Virus record (IMG/VR): IMGVR_UViG_3300036859_000110
Location: 1-35,972 of that record
DNA length: 35,972 nucleotides
Source: a virus
Direction: 5' to 3' (one strand)
The notes beneath the pieces were generated by a model. It was not told where the DNA came from, ran no database searches, and saw only the letters and a list, made by a program, of their open reading frames with translations. Below are positions 1 through 35,972 of the stretch, in pieces; position 1 is the first letter of the stretch; each line of letters starts with the position of its first letter. The position numbers were made by a program, and so were the translations under genes.

Positions 1-45
1 GATCCTCAGAATCTCATCGACCATGGCCCGGGCCTCCTTCATCAT
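1..45 (-). CDS. partial gene, alternative occupant of the YopX slot
   Basis: Fifteen codons (MMKEARAMVDEILRI) run off the left edge of the window from an ATGATG start. The first ATG overlaps the TGA stop of the small membrane gene upstream, exactly as the YopX-like gene does at the other end of the window. The two downstream genes share only the start region and then differ completely. I do not recognise the product from 15 residues; it looks helical and charged. It probably represents a second gene version at this locus in a mixed population, or a second genomic copy of the upstream cassette. Confidence 0.5.
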   Translation of the reverse strand, partial: MMKEARAMVDEILRI

Positions 46-164
46 TCCTCCACCACTTGGGGTTTCCATTCGAGGGTTTTCATGGGGCTGATATACGGCA
101 CCATGCCGGACTCGACGTGGTTCTTGTAGTCGCCGCCCACCATAGCAACGCCCACGACTATTCC
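39..164. repeat. 126-bp repeat, left copy (end overlap)
   Basis: Bases 39-164 are identical to 35847-35972. The right copy sits at the very end of the window, while the left copy is 38 bases inside it, so this is not a simple overlap at both extremes. It covers the last 40 codons of the small membrane gene plus the next start codons. The simplest reading is a circular map closed at this repeat, with the first 38 bases coming from a variant. Confidence 0.95.
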
Positions 165-2156: not shown

Positions 2157-2299
2157 TCGTCGCCCCCGTCTTCACATTGCGAAATGGCGTCAATGAAGTC
2201 GTCGTAGTCCATGCCGCAGAGTTCAGCGGCATACGCCAGGGTAGCCCCGTCACCCATGCCGCACTGTTCTGCAATCTCAAGCGCTTCACAAGGATTCAT
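2153..2299 (-). CDS. small acidic protein, 48 aa
   Basis: The ATG overlaps the stop of the ribbon-helix-helix gene, and the TGA overlaps the ATG of the ATPase gene, so it is coupled on both sides. The product is acidic, with four Cys spread along it, two of them in Cys-Gly-Met repeats, and a C-terminus of DGGDE. The family is not recognised. Coupling between regulator and recombinase suggests an early role. The coding call rests on the 4-base overlaps at both ends and the upstream GAGGGGAAG ribosome-binding region. Confidence 0.75.
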   Translation of the reverse strand: MNPCEALEIAEQCGMGDGATLAYAAELCGMDYDDFIDAISQCEDGGDE

Positions 2300-2448
2300 C
2301 GCTTCCCCTCCGATTTCTCCGATTCCCGCCCCTTGCGAATCCAGCGGCGCAGGATGTCCGACATGGTCAGCCCCTCGCGGGCTGCCTTCTCTCTCGCCTC
2401 GACCAGTTCGTCAGGTTCAAGGCGTACGTCTGTTCGTTCTTTTGCCAT
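2296..2448 (-). CDS. ribbon-helix-helix (Arc/CopG-type) regulator, 50 aa
   Basis: The product begins MAKERTDVRLEPDELVEA, giving a short beta strand (TDVRLEP) and then two helices around EAREKAAREG and TMSDILRRWIRKG, the standard ribbon-helix-helix layout. Such proteins dimerise and place the strand in the major groove of short repeated operators. It is the first leftward gene of the divergent control region. There is no ribosome-binding site: the start codon falls where transcription from the promoter at 2455-2483 should begin, so the message is probably leaderless. Likely represses or activates one or both divergent promoters (inference). Confidence 0.85.
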   Translation of the reverse strand: MAKERTDVRLEPDELVEAREKAAREGLTMSDILRRWIRKGRESEKSEGKR

Positions 2449-2450
2449 GT

Positions 2451-2476
2451 GCACACACTAGCCCACAAATGCACAC
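2451..2476 (-). promoter_or_regulatory. GTGTGC repeats, candidate operator (leftward promoter)
   Basis: Minus-strand GTGTGC occurs at 2471-2476 and again at 2451-2456, 20 bp apart, inside and just after the leftward promoter. The palindrome TGTGCACA at 2448-2455 covers the second copy and the start site. Ribbon-helix-helix proteins usually bind short repeats spaced by helical turns. Binding by the adjacent regulator is inferred. Confidence 0.45.
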
Positions 2477-2483
2477 GGGTCAA
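2455..2483 (-). promoter_or_regulatory. leftward promoter of the regulator/recombination unit
   Basis: Minus-strand TTGACC (2478-2483), a 17-bp spacer, and TAGTGT (2455-2460) resemble a sigma-70 promoter with a weak -10. The predicted first transcribed base is about 2448, the A of the regulator's ATG, so the transcript would be leaderless. Confidence 0.6.
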
Positions 2484-2503: not shown

Positions 2504-2518
2504 CAAAGTAGCACTTTG
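2504..2518. promoter_or_regulatory. perfect inverted repeat CAAAGT-AGC-ACTTTG
   Basis: A 6-bp perfect inverted repeat with a 3-bp centre overlaps the left half of the two-part element at 2509-2554. Its CAAAGT half recurs at 2536. It has the look of a protein-binding site between the divergent promoters. No protein can be named. Confidence 0.5.
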
Positions 2519-2554
2519 CTCCCGTGCGAATGTCACAAAGTCCAGAATTGTAAA
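2509..2554 (+). promoter_or_regulatory. two-part 46-bp element, copy 1
   Basis: TAGCACTTT at 2509-2517, 18 unrelated bases, then CAAAGTCCAGAATTGTAAA at 2536-2554. The same two blocks with the same 18-base gap occur on the opposite strand at 11138-11183. Here the element ends 27 bases before the -35 of the rightward promoter, the position of an upstream activator site. The remaining part of the 2449-2650 intergenic region holds the two promoters and no other gene. Confidence 0.75.
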
Positions 2555-2581: not shown

Positions 2582-2609
2582 TTGACCGTGTGCCGATGTG
2601 TGCTATACT
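2582..2609 (+). promoter_or_regulatory. rightward sigma-70-type promoter
   Basis: TTGACC (2582-2587), 16-bp spacer, TATACT (2604-2609) preceded by TGC, giving an extended -10. Transcription should start near 2616, about 35 bases before the first plus-strand gene. It mirrors the leftward promoter, which also begins GTTGACC followed by GTGTGC. Confidence 0.8.
2588..2603 (+). promoter_or_regulatory. GTGTGC repeats, candidate operator (rightward promoter)
   Basis: GTGTGC at 2588-2593 and 2598-2603, exactly 10 bp apart, fill the spacer between -35 and -10. The same hexamer directly follows the -35 of the leftward promoter. Candidate binding site for the ribbon-helix-helix regulator; inferred. Confidence 0.45.
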
Positions 2610-2887: not shown

Positions 2888-2958
2888 AGCCGCCCCCTAA
2901 CCGGGGCACTCCTCCGGGCCTGCGTGGGCTCGCTGATGATGGCTCAAAAGAGCCGAAA
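2888..2958 (+). promoter_or_regulatory. intercistronic hairpins
   Basis: Between the first two rightward genes, GCCCC/GGGGC forms a hairpin that can sit inside a larger GAGCC/GGGCTC stem. It is followed at 2941-2954 by GGCTC-AAAA-GAGCC directly before the ribosome-binding site GAAAGGAG. No T-run follows, so these look like mRNA stability or translation elements rather than terminators. Confidence 0.45.
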
Positions 2959-2967
2959 GGAGTTGAG

Positions 2968-3425: not shown

Positions 3426-3971
3426 ATGGCAACGAGAACTAAGAAAGCGCCCGTGTCTACGCGGGATGTGACAATCAAGGCTTTCGCGGAGAAGCATTCC
3501 GCGTGCGGTTCGGGTGTTACCTGGGCGAAGAAGAACTGCCTGACCGGCATGATGAGCGAGGCGTACGAAAAGCTACTCGACGCCGCAACGCCCGGAAATG
3601 AAGCCGAGGGATATTTCTGGTGGGTGTTCGGTCACGCCTTCGACGACAAGACCCTGCGTCTGTTCGCTGTTCGGGTGGTGCGTGAAACTCCGCTTGCGGA
3701 TGGTCGCCATGTCGTCGACCTCCTGACGGATCAGCGGAGCCTTGACGCGCTGACGGCGGCAGAACGGTTTGCCAACGGGGAAATCAGTGAACAGGAGTTG
3801 GCCGCCGCCAGGGACGCCGCCTGGGCCGCCGCCTGGGCCGCCGCCTGGGCCGCCGCCTGGGCCGCCGCCAGGGACGCCGCCAGGGACGCCGCCTGGGCCG
3901 CCGCCTGGGCCGCCGCCTGGGCCGCGCAACTCATCATCATTCGTACGTTGGGGAACCCGTTCAAGGACTAA
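3426..3971 (+). CDS. Ala/Trp tetrapeptide-repeat protein, 181 aa
   Basis: Start ATG behind AAGGAGGATTTGG. Residues 1-125 form a globular part (SACGSGVTWAKKNCL, then a strand-rich segment and VVDLLTDQRSLDALTAAERFA). Residues about 126-167 are a run of tetrapeptides, AAWA or AARD, in the order RD, four WA, two RD, three WA. Phage proteins with this kind of C-terminal Ala/Trp helix exist but their role is not established. The repeat would make one long helix with Trp and Arg/Asp at fixed spacing. The C-terminus QLIIIRTLGNPFKD follows. Confidence 0.8.
   Translation: MATRTKKAPVSTRDVTIKAFAEKHSACGSGVTWAKKNCLTGMMSEAYEKLLDAATPGNEAEGYFWWVFGHAFDDKTLRLFAVRVVRETPLADGRHVVDLLTDQRSLDALTAAERFANGEISEQELAAARDAAWAAAWAAAWAAAWAAARDAARDAAWAAAWAAAWAAQLIIIRTLGNPFKD
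3803..3925 (+). repeat. 12-bp tandem repeat inside the Ala/Trp gene
   Basis: About ten copies of a 12-bp unit, GCCGCCTGGGCC or the variant GCCGCCAGGGAC, encode AAWA or AARD. The copies are nearly identical at the DNA level, so the tract should gain or lose units in steps of four residues without changing frame. The GC-rich tract also keeps the other reading frames open. Confidence 0.9.
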
Positions 3972-4885: not shown

Positions 4886-5064
4886 CATGTCCTAGGCGTC
4901 ACCCGCAAATCCTCCGGCACCGAGAACCCGCGCCACTCGGGGTCATCCTCGATCACCGGAGTTCTGCTACCGTAGTCGTTGTGTCCCGGGTCGCCCTTGG
5001 GTCCGTGGGTACGGTCCTGGATGATCTTGTGTCCGGCTAGTGGTTGGGTGAGGGAGTAGGTCAC
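4885..5064 (-). CDS. hypothetical protein, 59 aa
   Basis: GTG start in a GTGA overlap with the membrane gene upstream. The same frame stays open further upstream, but that part is a shadow of the membrane gene. The product is hydrophilic, with Pro/Gly/Asp-rich stretches (RTHGPKGDPGHNDYG) and a RVTPRT end, and has no recognisable fold. It is the last gene of the long leftward small-gene unit, ending against the rightward terminator. Confidence 0.6.
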   Translation of the reverse strand: MTYSLTQPLAGHKIIQDRTHGPKGDPGHNDYGSRTPVIEDDPEWRGFSVPEDLRVTPRT

Positions 5065-5198
5065 TCGGAGGTGCCCCAGATGGCTATTCCAATCCACATC
5101 GAAGCCACCAACCACCCTCCGATTGCCATGAGATTGACAGTGAATATCGATATTGCCAGATTGCAGACGGCTAGCCAGAAAGCAACATGTTTGGTCAT
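5061..5198 (-). CDS. small membrane protein, two TM segments, 45 aa
   Basis: ATG overlaps the upstream TGA (ATGA), and its own TGA overlaps the next GTG. The product starts MTKHVAFWLAVCNLAISIF and contains two hydrophobic stretches, about residues 5-25 and 26-43, with little loop between them. Its size and closeness to the endolysin (215 bp downstream of that gene's stop) make it a candidate holin or antiholin. That is inference from position and hydrophobicity only. Confidence 0.65.
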   Translation of the reverse strand: MTKHVAFWLAVCNLAISIFTVNLMAIGGWLVASMWIGIAIWGTSE

Positions 5199-10720: not shown

Positions 10721-10767
10721 TTTCACCTCCAGCGGTTGTTTTTCCGACCTATACAACCAACGTGCCA

Positions 10768-10849
10768 CGGAATGACGAGAGTCCGACTCTCATGCTTTCG
10801 CACCATCGGTTTAGCAAACCGCGCCCGATCCCCTCGGGTTGTCCATTCC
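10768..10849 (-). tRNA. tRNA-Ser (GCT anticodon), divergent
   Basis: Acceptor strands GGAATGG (from 10849) and TCATTCC pair over 7 bp with one G-T pair, and the discriminator base is G, as in serine tRNAs. Loop TTGCTAA between CGGT and ACCG gives anticodon GCT for AGC/AGT codons. A variable arm with a GCGAAAGC core makes it class II. The T stem abuts the acceptor, but the loop reads GTCGGAC rather than TTCGANT, and position 8 is A rather than T. CCA is not encoded. It is probably real, but its function is less certain. Confidence 0.68.
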
Positions 10850-10854
10850 AAAAA

Positions 10855-10938
10855 CGGAGTGCAGAGGTGTCGATCCCCCGCGCTTTCGCGTGCATCCCGG
10901 TTTTCAAGACCGGTTGGCGAGCCGTCGCCGTACACTCC
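10855..10938 (-). tRNA. tRNA-Ser (TGA anticodon), divergent
   Basis: Acceptor strands GGAGTGT and GCACTCC pair over 7 bp with discriminator G. Anticodon stem CCGGT/ACCGG with loop CTTGAAA gives TGA, reading TCN codons, and matches the usual serine anticodon arm. The long variable arm has a CGC-GAAA-GCG hairpin. The T loop is ATCGACA instead of TTCGANT, and position 8 is A. It lies 5 bases upstream of the second tRNA, so both are surely cut from one transcript. CCA is not encoded. Confidence 0.75.
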
Positions 10939-10984
10939 ATGCCCGCGTTTCACGCATCGCGGCGTTGCGAGTTCCCCTCCCTAG

Positions 10985-11093: not shown

Positions 11094-11121
11094 AGTTTAA
11101 CGGAGTCTGACGAAATGTCTA
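11094..11121 (-). promoter_or_regulatory. leftward promoter of the tRNA/small-gene unit
   Basis: Minus-strand TAGACA (11116-11121), 16-bp spacer, TAAACT (11094-11099). Transcription would start near 11087 and read the 29-residue peptide, the two tRNAs and the coupled small genes. Copy 2 of the two-part element ends 16 bases upstream of its -35. Confidence 0.55.
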
Positions 11122-11137: not shown

Positions 11138-11183
11138 TTTACAATTCTGGACTTTGCGGATGGGTGGTGGTAGGAAAGTGCTA
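11138..11183 (-). promoter_or_regulatory. two-part 46-bp element, copy 2
   Basis: On the minus strand, TAGCACTTT (11175-11183), 18 unrelated bases, then CAAAGTCCAGAATTGTAAA (11138-11156). Block sequences and gap length are identical to copy 1 at 2509-2554. The rest of the 11075-11378 gap contains the promoter, a decayed gene and a weak terminator. Confidence 0.75.
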
Positions 11184-11378: not shown

Positions 11379-11690
11379 TCAGACGACCTTCACGCCATCC
11401 CGGTCCGCCAGAACAGCCAGCTGATTCCCCGCCATCTTGAGTTCGTCTGCGTGCTTAGACAACACCCCCTCGTGCCTCTCTAGGGTGTTGTCGATTTCTC
11501 GGAGCTTCCCACCCTGCTCGTCGAGCTTGCTCTTGTGCTCGTCTGACCGTGTCCACTGCTTGTCAACCTTGGTGTCCAGACGGCCTACCGCGACCGTAAC
11601 CCGGTCAATCGAGATCGCCAGTTTCCAGATGATGCCGCCAAGGGCAATAGCGAAGCTAGCCAGCCCAACCCACGTTCCGATCATTTCCAT
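11379..11690 (-). CDS. membrane-anchored coiled-coil protein (holin- or spanin-like)
   Basis: Product of 103 aa; ATG at 11690 follows AGGAGTCTGT. Residues about 4-24 form one membrane helix (GTWVGLASFAIALGGIIWKL). The rest is a long charged coiled coil (VGRLDTKVDKQWTRSDEHK, then helical to about residue 90). Small proteins of this layout after tail fibre genes are often holin or inner-membrane spanin components. The endolysin is 5.5 kb away, so the lysis assignment is inference. It is the last gene of the structural unit. Confidence 0.65.
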   Translation of the reverse strand: MEMIGTWVGLASFAIALGGIIWKLAISIDRVTVAVGRLDTKVDKQWTRSDEHKSKLDEQGGKLREIDNTLERHEGVLSKHADELKMAGNQLAVLADRDGVKVV

Positions 11691-11718
11691 ACAGACTCCT
11701 TTTGGTTCCTCTTGTTGC

Positions 11719-12222
11719 TCATTCCCAAGGTCCCCACGCTTGCCAATAGACCGGGTAGACTGCGGCATTGTCAGACATCCACACATTGACAGCAAACCCA
11801 GTGGCGCTAACTGGGTTAGATCCTGATCGATTCGATAAAAAGGCTGAACCGACAGTCAGGTTTTTAGGGCCTACGCTTATTGTCACAGACAGTGGAGCGC
11901 TGGCGAATGGCGTGGGAAACGTCACTACAGTGTCAGTGCTGGAATAGTAGTTCGGCGAAAACAGAGTATTTGTTGTCACGGTAGTCGAGCCGCATTGCAT
12001 CATCAAACCGCCTGGGAACTTTATGTATCTACCGGTCGCGGTGGAACCCTCGACGGGATAGGCCCCATCGGCGGCGGATCGAGCCTCATCAGCAGAAGTT
12101 TGTGCATTGCTGGCGGCGGTGGAAACAAGATTGGCCTTGGCTAGGAGATCCAGTGCGACCTTATTGATCTCAGTGAGGGAGTTATCGGCGGCTAGAAGCG
12201 TCCCTGTGAATCGGTCGCCCAT
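11719..12222 (-). CDS. short tail fibre / receptor-binding protein, 167 aa
   Basis: An N-terminal helical stalk (LTEINKVALDLLAKANLV, then ASNAQTSADEARSAADGA) is followed by a strand-rich tip beginning YIKFPGGLMMQCG and ending PVYWQAWGPWE. The tip motif is typical of phage fibre C-terminal domains of the gp53-like type, which bind host surface sugars or proteins. The ATG overlaps the upstream TGA. At 167 residues it is short and must attach through its stalk to the tail hub. It is the clearest host-range determinant in the window. Confidence 0.8.
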   Translation of the reverse strand: MGDRFTGTLLAADNSLTEINKVALDLLAKANLVSTAASNAQTSADEARSAADGAYPVEGSTATGRYIKFPGGLMMQCGSTTVTTNTLFSPNYYSSTDTVVTFPTPFASAPLSVTISVGPKNLTVGSAFLSNRSGSNPVSATGFAVNVWMSDNAAVYPVYWQAWGPWE

Positions 12223-24245: not shown

Positions 24246-24899
24246 TTAGTACGGGCTGCTCTTGCCCGAGGCTTTGTTCTTGGCCTGCATTCCCCTGATC
24301 TTCTTCATCAGGTTCTCGTCAGGCGCATTGTCGTCACTCTCCACAGTGACCGTGCTAGTCTCAACCGAAGCCGCCTCGGGCGCTTCTTCCACAGCGGGTT
24401 CCTCGGGCTTGGCTCCCTCGGGAATCGACCCACGGAGCTTCATCAGCTTTTCCCCGATGCTGGTAGCGGCTCCGGTGATGCTGGCAAGCTCCTTCTCGTC
24501 GTTCCACTCCGGGTCGCCGCCCCGCGCCTCTTCAATCAAGTCATAGAGCGACCCGAACAAATCGGAGTCCGGCTCCAGCTCCTTGATCGCGCCCATGTGC
24601 GGCTCGAAAAGATGCCCGTACTTGTCCTGGATTCCCTTGACTCCAGTGGTGCGAAGGTTGCCCTTGTAGAGCTTCTCCACACCGCCGATCAGGTCGTCCA
24701 TGACCACGCACTCCAGCTTCTGGAGCCGGTCTTCCAGCTCCTCAACCTTGCCGATCAGCAGCTCGATACACTTGAGTACCGGGTCCATCTGCTCGGCGTC
24801 CTGCTCCGCGTCGGGATGTCCTTCTCCGCCTTGATACTTGGCGATCAGTTGCATCAGAAGCTCATCCTTTTCCTGCGGGTTCAATCCTGAAAGATCCAT
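24246..24899 (-). CDS. scaffolding protein, 217 aa
   Basis: The product is acidic and helical, lies between portal and capsid, and starts behind AGGAGTAGAGC. Residues about 40-70 form a coiled coil (CIELLIGKVEELEDRLQKLE). Residues 165-190 are Pro/Glu/Ala-rich and flexible, and the last 25 residues are basic (NLMKKIRGMQAKNKASGK), as is usual for the capsid-binding end of podovirus scaffolds. No sequence family match is claimed; the assignment rests on layout and gene order. Confidence 0.78.
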   Translation of the reverse strand: MDLSGLNPQEKDELLMQLIAKYQGGEGHPDAEQDAEQMDPVLKCIELLIGKVEELEDRLQKLECVVMDDLIGGVEKLYKGNLRTTGVKGIQDKYGHLFEPHMGAIKELEPDSDLFGSLYDLIEEARGGDPEWNDEKELASITGAATSIGEKLMKLRGSIPEGAKPEEPAVEEAPEAASVETSTVTVESDDNAPDENLMKKIRGMQAKNKASGKSSPY

Positions 24900-30486: not shown

Positions 30487-30645
30487 CTAGAGGCCTTTAT
30501 GTCCGATATGCCACCAATGGCAGTATTCGCATTGGTATGCGTGCATCCTGTCGCGCTGCCTCATCGTGTTCAATGCACGCTGAGCCTGTTGTTTACTGGT
30601 GAATCGAGCCTTTCTTCCACACATGTCCCGTTCCCGGTAGGTCAC
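30487..30645 (-). CDS. small Cys/His zinc-finger protein, 52 aa
   Basis: GTG start in a GTGA overlap (an ATG seven codons in, MCGRKARF, is the alternative). The product has a CEYCHWWHIGH cluster near the C-terminus and a basic helix with FTSKQQAQRALNTMRQRD before it. Proteins with this YxCxYCxxWHxGH ending are widespread in phages and probably bind zinc. Last gene of the replication unit, about 20 bases before the next promoter. Confidence 0.78.
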   Translation of the reverse strand: MTYRERDMCGRKARFTSKQQAQRALNTMRQRDRMHAYQCEYCHWWHIGHKGL

Positions 30646-30884
30646 TCTACCCCCTCCAGCAGCTTAGCGAGTTGGCAGTTCTCATTATGCTTGTCTGGCA
30701 TTCCACACTCTGGACACCAGAAGTGCTCTACGCACCACTCATGCTTCTTCAACATCGCCTCAAGGTCCCGAGTCCGTTCGCCCTGAATCTCCGCGATGGC
30801 CTCCGCCAACCCCGCAATCTCCCACTTCATGAGCCGGGGCACCTTGGACTTGATGGCTTCGATGAGCTTGTCTTTGGTGGTCAT
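30642..30884 (-). CDS. small zinc-binding protein, 80 aa
   Basis: ATGA overlap upstream and GTGA overlap downstream. The N-terminal 45 residues are helical (DKLIEAIKSKVPRLMKWEI, then AGLAEAIAEIQGERTRDLE). The C-terminal part holds WCVEHFWCPECGMPDKH, an array of Cys and His suited to one zinc ion. Function unknown. Confidence 0.72.
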   Translation of the reverse strand: MTTKDKLIEAIKSKVPRLMKWEIAGLAEAIAEIQGERTRDLEAMLKKHEWCVEHFWCPECGMPDKHNENCQLAKLLEGVE

Positions 30885-32325: not shown

Positions 32326-32877
32326 TCAATCTCTGTACGGTTCCCGTCTCTCAACGGGCTTCCCGATTTCCTCTAGCATGGTCTGTATTCGCGCCTTCCG
32401 TGCGCCCGGCTTCGAGGCCTGGAGTCTCCGGTACTCTATCGCCTCTGGTGTGTTGCTGTACCACGGTGACGGACCTTGAGGGAACTTATCAATGATCTCT
32501 TGACCCCTCTCTCGGCTCACGGAGATACCCACCGGGCCAATGGCCGTCCAGTACCTCGCGCCATTCCCGCACCGTGGGCACTTCATGGTTTCGACCGGGA
32601 AGTGGTAAGCCTCACCCCGAGACGCGCAAAGGTAACAAATCCCTATGTACTTCTGCGCCCTCTCAGCCGGGTAGATTCCCGCCTTCTCAGCGGCGTTGAT
32701 GACGTGACCCTTTCGAGGTGGTGAGACCAGAAGGTAGTTGACCTCGAAATAGTCCCACAGTTTTCCGATGTTCGCCTCACCCAGCGAGACAACGTAGCTG
32801 CCGATGTCAGCGACGGTGTGGGCTTCCATGCCCTTGAAGGTCTGCGTCAGCTTGGCCAGAAACTCGCTCTTGGTCAT
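32326..32877 (-). CDS. replication-unit protein with zinc finger, 183 aa
   Basis: ATGA overlap with the initiator-like gene. Residues 1-70 are helical (SEFLAKLTQTFKGMEAHTV, then GKLWDYFEVNYLLVSPP). Residues 77-103 hold CYLCASRGEAYHF and CPRCGNG, a two-CxxC zinc finger. The C-terminus is helical and basic. Genes coupled right behind a phage initiator often encode helicase loaders, but there is no ATPase motif here, so that role is only a possibility. Confidence 0.7.
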   Translation of the reverse strand: MTKSEFLAKLTQTFKGMEAHTVADIGSYVVSLGEANIGKLWDYFEVNYLLVSPPRKGHVINAAEKAGIYPAERAQKYIGICYLCASRGEAYHFPVETMKCPRCGNGARYWTAIGPVGISVSRERGQEIIDKFPQGPSPWYSNTPEAIEYRRLQASKPGARKARIQTMLEEIGKPVERREPYRD

Positions 32878-33524
32878 GCGCGAACCATCCCGCGCTCAAT
32901 CTCCTCGGCCCGTCTGAGTACGTCGGCCACGCGCTCATCCTCAGTCATCCCGTGGTTCTTCTCCCGGTCACGCTTGGCCCAGTTGCGAATGGTCAGGTTG
33001 TGGTTCTTGTACTTCGCGCCCTTCATTTCGATGTACTCGTCGAGTCTGGTGATTCGGTCTTGCCAGTCTAGCGGGAAGTCTGCCTTTAGCTTGTCGAGTT
33101 CGGAGGTAGTGAGGAGAACGTGTTGGTATTCACCGTGTTTGTGTTTGATGGGCTTGCGCGTGGTCTCTATAGATGTTTCTTTAGAAGTCTGTAAAGACAA
33201 GAGAATACTATGTTCATCATTTTGATTAGGGGGGGTCTCATCATTTTGATTAGGGGGTCTCATCATTTTGATTACCCTATCACCACCGTTTTCAACGTCC
33301 ACCTCGATGAGGTTCCTCTGCGCGAGCTTCTTGATTGCCCTCGTGACAGTGGGAACAGAACACCCGAGGAACTTGGAGAAGTGCGCGTTGGAGGCGTAGC
33401 AATGCCTCAGGGTGGAGTCTAGGGAATCAATCTCGACGAGAATACATTTTTCGATCATGGAAAACGACTTGTCCAGCCACAGTTCAGCCGGGATGAAAAC
33501 GCCTGTAAATCTACGTTCGCTCAT
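32874..33524 (-). CDS. winged-helix replication initiator-like protein, 216 aa
   Basis: ATG at 33524 overlaps the upstream TGA; a GTG three codons earlier is less well placed for the GGAG motif. The N-terminal 95 residues fit the winged-helix domain of phage replication proteins (FSMIEKCILVEIDSLDS, then NAHFSKFLGCSVPTVTRAIK with the recognition helix). A short Asn/Pro/Asp linker repeat (PPNQNDE twice) follows, then a C-terminal helical part with a motif TIRNWAKRDREKN. In related systems such proteins bind an origin within their own gene. The linker codes for near-identical 15-bp repeats near 33225-33262. Confidence 0.75.
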   Translation of the reverse strand: MSERRFTGVFIPAELWLDKSFSMIEKCILVEIDSLDSTLRHCYASNAHFSKFLGCSVPTVTRAIKKLAQRNLIEVDVENGGDRVIKMMRPPNQNDETPPNQNDEHSILLSLQTSKETSIETTRKPIKHKHGEYQHVLLTTSELDKLKADFPLDWQDRITRLDEYIEMKGAKYKNHNLTIRNWAKRDREKNHGMTEDERVADVLRRAEEIERGMVRA

Positions 33525-34036
33525 TTCGACCACTCCAAAGCCACGGCCTCAAGGGTCTCTATCAGCCCCTCAGATTCCAGGTAGTCCAGAACGCCCATGC
33601 CCCGGTTCTTTGCGGCCACCTTGGGCGACGAATTGGTACGGTACCCGAACTCCCGGTAGAGGTCCCCCCAGGCGGTGGAGAAGTCGATACCGGCACGATG
33701 CGCGTACTCCCGGACGATCTGGTTTACATGGTCGCGGGGCTTGACCTGAGGAGCTTGTATGGACAGCTTAGGGGTAGACTGATTTTGCGCGGTCAAAGCA
33801 AGAACAGCGCCTAGTAACTTCTCGACCATGGTTTCAAGGCGGTCGATGCGATCAACCTGACCCATTTGGGTTACGTTGTTCCTCTTGGGCATGGCGTCCA
33901 TGACCCGGTGAGCCTCTTCCCACGTGAATCTCGTCACCTTGCCCTTCTCCATTTTTGTAGGCATGTTTTCGGAAACCCACCTCTTGACAGTGTTAGTTCC
34001 ACACCCAGCCGTTTCAGCAATTTCTCTGATAGTCAT
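33521..34036 (-). CDS. HTH antirepressor-like regulator, 171 aa
   Basis: ATG behind CCGGAGGCTCT. Residues 1-45 form an HTH of the excisionase/MerR type (TIREIAETAGCGTNTVKRWV). A helical linker follows (VDRIDRLETMVEKLLGAVL). Residues about 105-150 (VREYAHRAGIDFSTAWGDLY, then REFGYRTN) resemble the ORF6C/antirepressor C-terminal domain. Such proteins control phage gene switches. It is the first gene of the unit behind the structured leader, so its own level may be set by that leader. Confidence 0.75.
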   Translation of the reverse strand: MTIREIAETAGCGTNTVKRWVSENMPTKMEKGKVTRFTWEEAHRVMDAMPKRNNVTQMGQVDRIDRLETMVEKLLGAVLALTAQNQSTPKLSIQAPQVKPRDHVNQIVREYAHRAGIDFSTAWGDLYREFGYRTNSSPKVAAKNRGMGVLDYLESEGLIETLEAVALEWSK

Positions 34037-34425: not shown

Positions 34426-34695
34426 TCAATACGGCGGCTCATGTCCTGTCCTCCTCGCCTCGCGGCTGATGCGCTCCTCGGTGTGGGCGTCGGCTTCCCG
34501 TTGTGCGGCGTAGCGGGCGCGGTTTTCGAGTTCGGTTTCGAACGGGTGCCAGTCAGTGCAGACACGTAAGGGCTTAAGGGGCGACGCTAGTTGCGAGTTG
34601 CACCACGGACACCACCCCATCGGCTTGTCCGCCAGCCAGTCTGGCTCCTCGTCGAACTCTCGGCTGCTCACGTTGTCGGGTAGGTCGCGGCTCAT
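34426..34695 (-). CDS. zinc-binding protein, 89 aa
   Basis: ATG at 34695 in an ATGA overlap. The central CPWCNSQLASPLKPLRVC gives three Cys with WH following, fitting one zinc ion. The C-terminal third is a very charged helix (ELENRARYAAQREADAHTE). Function unknown. Confidence 0.72.
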   Translation of the reverse strand: MSRDLPDNVSSREFDEEPDWLADKPMGWCPWCNSQLASPLKPLRVCTDWHPFETELENRARYAAQREADAHTEERISREARRTGHEPPY

Positions 34696-34952
34696 GGGGT
34701 GTCCTTTGTCAGCTTCCAAGCTGCATACCCACATCCGAAAGACGATCCAGCCATGGCTAGGCACCCCACCCATCGAAGAAACCCTGATATTGAGTTGTCG
34801 AGTTTCATGACATAATCCTTCCCGTTCCAGACTGGATGAGTCCACTGCCCCCAGGTAGCCGGATCAAAGTTCCAGGCCAGGAAGCACATCAGAAGATAGC
34901 CGAGAGCAGCGCCAACGATGCCAGAAAATGCAATGATGACATAGCGTTTCAT
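34692..34952 (-). CDS. two-TM membrane protein, 86 aa
   Basis: Two hydrophobic segments: residues about 4-28 (YVIIAFSGIVGAALGYLLM) and about 58-78 (FLRWVGCLAMAGSSFGCGYA), joined by a Trp-rich loop. The ATG overlaps the NinG-like stop. Unknown role; candidates are superinfection exclusion or lysis control. Confidence 0.7.
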   Translation of the reverse strand: MKRYVIIAFSGIVGAALGYLLMCFLAWNFDPATWGQWTHPVWNGKDYVMKLDNSISGFLRWVGCLAMAGSSFGCGYAAWKLTKDTP

Positions 34953-35368: not shown

Positions 35369-35853
35369 TTGAGTAGCTCCGGGTTCTCGTGGATGTTGCC
35401 GACGACTTCAATGTCACCTGTTTTGTCTGATCGCTTCCATCTCTGTTGGCTCATGTGGTTCTCTCCCCATGTATCAGGAGAAACCAAGGTTACAGCTCCA
35501 CCATCAAACCAAAGGTCAAGAGTCCTGTATCTCTCACAGAGAGTGGTGTCGATGGGGAATTGGTTGTTCTCATCGCCATTTTCAACAATGGATTCAAATA
35601 CTAATTCCAACCCGCAAAGCTGACCAAATTGCACACGGTAAATAGCCTCGCTGTTATGCTCTCCATTGTTAAGAGTTCTCTTAACTTTCAGCAGATCGTT
35701 TTGAAAAATCTCGACACCGTTCTTGTCCTTGAGTCCGGTATACTGCTCGATAGGGTATGACACCGAGGGGAATCCCAGGTGCTCGCCCATTGTGAAGAAA
35801 GCGTAGTGAAACCGCCCTCCAATGAATTGCCTGAACTTAAAGTCTCTCATCAT
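35365..35853 (-). CDS. YopX-like protein, 162 aa
   Basis: Start ATGATG overlaps the TGA of the small membrane gene. The N-terminus MMRDFKFRQFIGGRFHYAFF and the segment YTGLKDKNGVEIFQNDLLKV are the typical YopX signatures (a barrel with the conserved TGLKDKNGxEIFxxD). YopX proteins are common in phages and of unknown role. The gene is less GC-rich than its surroundings, which suggests recent acquisition. At the other end of the window a different gene follows the same junction. Confidence 0.88.
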   Translation of the reverse strand: MMRDFKFRQFIGGRFHYAFFTMGEHLGFPSVSYPIEQYTGLKDKNGVEIFQNDLLKVKRTLNNGEHNSEAIYRVQFGQLCGLELVFESIVENGDENNQFPIDTTLCERYRTLDLWFDGGAVTLVSPDTWGENHMSQQRWKRSDKTGDIEVVGNIHENPELLK

Positions 35854-35972
35854 TCCTCCACCACTTGGGGTTTCCATTCGAGGGTTTTCATGGGGCTGAT
35901 ATACGGCACCATGCCGGACTCGACGTGGTTCTTGTAGTCGCCGCCCACCATAGCAACGCCCACGACTATTCC
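35847..35972. repeat. 126-bp repeat, right copy (end overlap)
   Basis: Identical to 39-164. The map closes here: position 35972 corresponds to 164, and the sequence continues at 165. Confidence 0.95.
35850..35972 (-). CDS. partial second copy of the small membrane gene
   Basis: The C-terminal 40 residues of the protein at 42-224, cut off by the window's right edge. It ends KPQVVEE with a TGA overlapping the YopX start. If the map is circular this is the same gene seen twice; if not, it is a paralogue. Confidence 0.75.
   Translation of the reverse strand, partial: GIVVGVAMVGGDYKNHVESGMVPYISPMKTLEWKPQVVEE

What the first reader, a model, noticed from the sequence alone, without database searches (positions are those of the whole stretch)
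2509..2554. A 46-bp two-part element occurs once on each strand, upstream of two promoters
TAGCACTTT, a gap of exactly 18 bases, and CAAAGTCCAGAATTGTAAA are found at 2509-2554 (plus) and 11138-11183 (minus). Both blocks and the gap length are kept while the gap sequence differs, which is the mark of a two-contact binding site. Each copy points at, and lies 27 or 16 bases upstream of, a sigma-70-like promoter. One phage factor could coordinate the early rightward unit and the tRNA/small-gene unit. A role in replication initiation is the alternative.
Basis: partly seen in the sequence, partly recalled or inferred. Interest (0 to 1): 0.78.

Follow-up and report, generated by a model that had tools for sequence, protein, structure and literature searches.

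The report
Two-block promoter-upstream element in phages
Two matching short DNA signs in this virus are copies of a control site that also sits, in the same orientation, just upstream of likely promoters in at least five related uncultured bacterial viruses, so it is probably where an unidentified protein docks to control several virus operons together.

Summary
I found 10 more copies in five other IMG/VR phage contigs (12 in all, 1-3 per contig) that share early or late modules with the window. In all 12 the right block points at a sigma-70-like promoter (combined p 3e-14 against non-coding positions), with the -35 box at 19 (3x), 29 (4x), 22, 25, 34, 45 or 54 bp. No conserved RNA hairpin; only chance-level hits in about 85,000 bacterial genomes; no match in cultivated phages. 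The adjacent RHH protein is an unlikely binder: its probable operators are separate GTGTGC repeats inside the promoters, and end-repeat-complete phage G5 has the element without a detected homologue. Replication is disfavoured: likely iterons lie in the initiator gene at 33.2 kb. Best reading: an upstream activator-type site, working like phi29 p4 sites or mycobacteriophage ESAS but a member of neither. The binding protein is unknown (host factor or a small zinc protein).

The parts
2509..2517 (+). left block of copy 1, TAGCACTTT (conservation continues weakly as NCTMCC to 2523)
   Evidence: alignment of 12 copies
2536..2548 (+). right block of copy 1, CAAAGTCCAGAAT; the following TGTAAA (2549-2554) is shared only by the two window copies
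2582..2609 (+). rightward promoter TTGACC-16-TATACT downstream of copy 1, with GTGTGC-N4-GTGTGC between the hexamers
2455..2483 (-). divergent leftward promoter TTGACC-17-TAGTGT ahead of the RHH/Sak4 operon, also with GTGTGC-type repeats
2296..2454 (-). 52-aa ribbon-helix-helix-like protein (weak NikA-like hit); probable repressor of both promoters, not the probable binder of the element
11175..11183 (-). left block of copy 2, TAGCACTTT
11144..11156 (-). right block of copy 2, CAAAGTCCAGAAT (then TGTAAA to 11138)
11094..11121 (-). promoter TAGACA-16-TAAACT downstream of copy 2, ahead of a 29-aa membrane peptide ORF (11074-10985) and two serine-tRNA-like genes

Best explanation
The element is a directional cis-regulatory site shared by a group of mosaic phages. 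Two partly inverted contacts (TAGCAYTTT and AAAGTCCAGA; shared inverted core ACTTT/AAAGT) about 24-26 bp apart centre to centre bind a dimeric or bivalent protein 19-54 bp upstream of the -35 box of sigma-70-type promoters, most likely to activate them, so that one factor switches several phage transcription units together. Shown: conservation of both blocks, order, orientation and promoter linkage in 12 copies. Inferred: that it is a DNA-binding site, that the effect is activation, and that one factor serves all copies. The binder is either a host factor or a small phage protein; among proteins that the two end-repeat-complete phages W and G5 share, two small Cys-rich families (window 30642-30884 and 34426-34845) are the only unassigned candidates I saw.
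For: Two exact copies, 0 in shuffles. Further copies in G1 (3), G3 (1), G4 (3), G5 (2), G6 (1), found by pattern scans and then shown to lie in contigs whose genes are homologous to the window's or to each other's. Shuffled genomes give essentially no hits at 3 or fewer mismatches. Best sigma-70-like promoter downstream of the right block: p<=0.08 in each of 12, combined 6.5e-14 against random positions, 3.4e-14 against non-coding positions; the other side is far weaker, 2.6e-4. -35 at exactly 19 bp in 3 and 29 bp in 4 copies. The one short-gap copy is 8-10 bp shorter than the others, about one helical turn. Syntenic copies in W, G1 and G4 persist although their RHH proteins are only about 45-59% identical.
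Against: No binding, transcription or mutant data. The promoter matrix is a generic E. coli-type one and the host is unknown. Distances to the -35 box vary; the phase test is weak and post hoc (Rayleigh p 0.015-0.04 from the left block, not significant from the right block). Some copies are homologous, so the 12 are not independent. Whether the site activates or represses cannot be told from sequence. No regulator common to all six was found; G1, G3, G4 and G6 may be incomplete.
Confidence: 0.62

Rival explanations
1. Same site, opposite effect: an operator for a repressor (lysogeny or early-shut-off type), perhaps acting by looping between copies on opposite strands.
For: Phage operators are often repeated and conserved; copy 1 lies centrally between divergent promoters.
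Against: The site lies 19-54 bp upstream of the -35 box and does not overlap the hexamers, an activator-like position; the promoters at copy 1 already carry separate probable RHH operators between -35 and -10. No integrase or immunity repressor was noticed in the window, though the whole proteome was not annotated.
Confidence: 0.2
2. RNA element: a stem-loop ACTTT/AAAGT with variable loop (leader, nut-like or terminator).
For: The 5-bp core is self-complementary; G3c1 has an 11-bp perfect stem and G1c3 and G5b longer ones.
Against: Window copies fold no better than gap shuffles (p 0.48 and 1.0); combined p 0.036 driven by G3c1; core changes in G4a and G4b break a pair and no compensating double change is seen; the site lies upstream of, not inside, the transcripts of the flanking promoters; no Rfam match at copy 1.
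Confidence: 0.06
3. Replication, partition or packaging site.
For: Few copies per genome, on opposite strands.
Against: Likely iterons (three copies, 22-24 bp apart) lie inside the replication initiator gene in the window (33214-33274) and at the same place in G1; copies number 1-3, differ in position and orientation between phages, and follow promoters.
Confidence: 0.07
4. Remnant of site-specific recombination or of a duplicated gene.
For: The two copies are inverted; early and late modules have opposite relative orientation in W and G1.
Against: Gap sequences differ completely, gap length varies, some contigs have three copies, no coding remnant, and all copies adjoin promoters.
Confidence: 0.03

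Closest known systems
phi29 protein p4 binding sites, 5'-CTTTTT-15 bp-AAAATG-3' (PMC3100819)
   Same: Imperfect inverted half-sites with T/A tracts, upstream of a phage promoter in a region with several early and late promoters; the C and G of the half-sites are 26 bp apart in p4 sites and also in both window copies (own count from the sequences).
   Different: Different half-sites with long asymmetric flanks (TAGC / CCAGA); spacing 27-28 or 18 in other copies; many loci per phage group; no p4 homologue (PF05464) in any of the six contigs.
Extended start-associated sequences (ESAS) of cluster K mycobacteriophages (PMC3203893)
   Same: Phage-specific, repeated, imperfect inverted repeats with variable spacer upstream of genes of unrelated families; the companion SAS is essentially absent from host genomes; binder unknown.
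   Different: ESAS arms are 17 bp with spacer 4-13 and about half of SAS-bearing genes have one, next to the SAS; here no SAS in the window, and no copy in the Pixie stretch tested.
P2 Ogr / P4 Delta-type zinc activators with upstream dyad sites (recalled, not tested beyond the family search)
   Same: Small phage zinc protein acting upstream of -35 on several late promoters.
   Different: Different site; no Ogr_Delta (PF04606) match in the six contigs.

Membership tests
phi29 p4 site | inverted CTTTTT / AAAATG half-sites 15 bp apart | tested here: not met
   12 copies carry ACTTT (variants ATTTT, ACGTT) and AAAGT (AAAAT once) with 19-21 or 11 bp between
phi29 p4 site | a p4-family protein encoded by the phage | tested here: not met
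   PF05464: 0 of 6 contigs at E<=1
phi29 p4 site | protein binding bends DNA and switches flanking promoters | not testable with these tools
   needs binding and transcription assays
Cluster K ESAS | 17-bp imperfect inverted repeats with a spacer mostly 4-13 bp | tested here: not met
   conserved blocks of 9 and 10 bp with only a 5-bp shared inverted core; gap 19-21 in 11 of 12
Cluster K ESAS | adjacent SAS GGGATAGGAGCCC near the start codon | tested here: not met
   0 SAS at <=2 mismatches in the window; 18 in the Pixie control stretch
P2 Ogr/Delta activator system | Ogr/Delta family zinc protein | tested here: not met
   PF04606: 0 of 6 contigs at E<=1
RHH-repressor operator | site travels with the RHH gene | tested here: not met
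   W-type RHH homologue found in W, G1 and G4 but not in G5, G3 or G6, which carry the element
bacterial host regulon site | sites present in bacterial genomes above chance | tested here: inconclusive
   4 hits to the strict pattern in 84,980 species genomes, in unrelated phyla and near the number I estimate for chance; the host may not be held and host sites may be weaker

The most novel reading that the evidence does not exclude
A previously undescribed activator, host-encoded or a tiny zinc protein, recognised by an unusually long and near-invariant two-part site that unrelated phage modules have all kept, so that mosaic phages can exchange promoters as plug-in parts of one shared regulon.
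Probability: 0.25. Interest if true: 0.6.

Novelty: new member of a known kind. Interest (0 to 1): 0.42.

Why it matters
It turns a two-copy curiosity into a conserved regulatory signal of a poorly known phage group with no close cultivated member found. Because the site is nearly invariant while the phage proteins around it are not, it points to a conserved, perhaps host-encoded, factor and marks the promoters of genes that should be expressed together. It also gives a sequence handle to find more such phages and, eventually, their host.

Tried and rejected
(1) Perfect 19-bp inverted-repeat reading (TTTACAAAGTAGCACTTTG / CAAAGTCCAGAATTGTAAA): true only of copy 1; the outer TTTACA arm is not kept in copy 2 or relatives. 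(2) Exact 19-mer in L001 and two-block hit in L008: judged chance (unrelated contigs, inside ORFs; about 0.4 and 0.8 expected by my estimate). (3) Other low-GC viral hits share no genes with the group: chance. (4) RNA hairpin and nut-site readings. (5) Replication origin. (6) p4, Ogr and RHH as binder. (7) AlphaFold of the 80-aa zinc protein: pLDDT 58.8, uninformative. (8) The motif in the literature: 260 papers hold one of the two strings; of the 15 listed none concerns phages. (9) Helical phasing of distances: suggestive only. Two viral scans were wasted on mis-specified patterns of mine (half-site spacer one base too long, gap range too short); their zero results mean nothing. In one search the mechanical ORF set covers true intergenic DNA, so its coding fractions at the sites should be ignored.

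Full report
OBSERVATION. The two-block pattern occurs exactly twice in the window, 2509-2554 (+) and 11138-11183 (-), and never in shuffles; it has no third copy in the record. The window is an IMG/VR virus record of 35,972 bp and 57.8% GC whose ends overlap by 113 bp, so it is probably a complete, circularly mapping genome. It encodes a Sak4-like annealing protein, an initiator-like protein, a NinG-like nuclease, TerL and portal.

RELATIVES. Searching with the Sak4 protein gave IMGVR_UViG_3300033076_000503 (G1, 34,174 bp; Sak4 85% identical). G1 shares the early module with the window but not the late one. Pattern scans of the viral collection then gave G3 (IMGVR_UViG_3300025924_000082), G4 (IMGVR_UViG_3300025924_000076), G5 (IMGVR_UViG_3300010397_000033) and G6 (IMGVR_UViG_3300032893_001244). 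These contigs share genes with the window or with each other, which separates them from chance hits. G2 (IMGVR_UViG_3300012984_000007), which shares only the late module with the window, lacks the element.

ANATOMY. The 12 copies give TAGCAYTTT, usually followed by NCTMCC, then a variable stretch, then AAAGTCCAGA. Between TTT and AAAGT there are 19, 19, 11, 21, 20, 21, 19, 20, 21, 20, 21, 21 bp. One copy (G5b) is weak in the right block. The two blocks share an inverted core ACTTT/AAAGT but have different, conserved flanks (TAGC and CCAGA), so the site is directional.

PROMOTERS. An objective scan for the best sigma-70-like promoter within 90 bp of the right block gives p<=0.08 for each of 12 copies and a combined p of 6.5e-14; the opposite side gives 2.6e-4, due to truly divergent pairs. 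Against non-coding control positions the downstream result is 3.4e-14. Distances from AAAGT to the -35 box are 45 and 34 in the window and 29, 19, 29, 19, 54, 29, 19, 22, 25, 29 elsewhere. The repeated 19 and 29, ten bases apart, and the single short-gap copy about one turn shorter, fit binding on one face of the helix, but the formal phase test is weak. The copies are partly homologous (G1c2/G3c1/G5b precede one gene family; G1c3/G4b look homologous by sequence), so these p values overstate independence.

WHAT IT CONTROLS. Copy 1 lies between the RHH-Sak4 operon and the rightward small-gene operon. Copy 2 follows the gene at 11379-11795 at the end of the late region and precedes a 29-aa membrane peptide ORF and two serine-tRNA-like genes; G1c3 has a similar setting, after a coiled-coil/membrane gene at the end of the late region. 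G1c2, G3c1 and G5b precede a 137-141 aa protein family that also has a distant homologue in Tetrasphaera phage TJE1.

WHO BINDS. Not, it seems, the RHH protein: GTGTGC-type tandem repeats sit between the -35 and -10 boxes of the promoters around copy 1 in W, G1 and G4 and nowhere else in those genomes, which is where an autorepressor would act, and G5 has the element without a detected homologue of this RHH (G5 does encode another RHH-like ORF at 4937-5134). No protein is common to all six contigs. W and G5, both with overlapping ends, share only a few families: a NinB-like protein, an HNH enzyme, a lysozyme, a tail protein and two small Cys-rich proteins. So either one of these small proteins or a host factor is implied. 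The bacterial-genome scan found only about as many strict matches as I expect by chance, which weakens but does not exclude a host factor, since the host is unknown. The near-invariance of the site beside diverging phage proteins is my main reason to keep the host option open; that is inference.

ALTERNATIVES. RNA structure: not conserved. Replication: three probable iterons lie in the initiator gene at 33214-33274, at the same place in G1. Known systems: phi29 p4 sites (PMC3100819) are the closest in geometry, with the same 26-bp separation of the key C and G as both window copies, and ESAS of cluster K mycobacteriophages (PMC3203893) the closest in genomic habit. Tested defining features of both fail, as does Ogr/Delta. 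It works like them; it is not shown to be one of them.

VERDICT. A real, conserved phage cis-regulatory element, most likely an upstream activator site with an unidentified binder.

Noticed in passing
window 2455-2483 (-) and 2582-2609 (+); G1 4876 (-), 4963 (+); G4 29741 (-): GTGTGC-type direct repeats of period 10-11 lie between the -35 and -10 boxes of the promoters flanking copy 1 and nowhere else in these genomes: probable operators of the 52-aa RHH protein.
   Followed up: partly
window 33214-33274: Three 22-24 bp iterons inside the replication initiator gene (32874-33533), at the same place in G1: probable origin, lambda O-like arrangement.
   Followed up: partly
window 10855-10939 (-) and 10767-10850 (-): Two serine-tRNA-like genes (anticodons UGA, GCU) missed at default ARAGORN settings; the first matches Rfam tRNA-Sec at E 1.3e-6 but below the gathering score.
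   Followed up: partly
window 2903-2962: 60 bp between two small genes are 88% identical to Tetrasphaera phage TJE1 12325-12384 (opposite strand), though hardly anything else is shared; absent from the other relatives.
   Followed up: partly
window 3800-3925: 12-bp tandem repeat, 10.5 copies, inside ORF 3426-3971 encodes an Ala/Trp repeat (AAWAAAWAA...).
   Followed up: no
G1 4929-4990 and 33848-33912; G4 24481-24540: Predicted -10 boxes end about 6 bases before the start codon, suggesting leaderless mRNAs.
   Followed up: no
window 39-151 and 35847-35959: 113-bp direct end repeat, the sign of a circularly closed or terminally redundant assembly.
   Followed up: no
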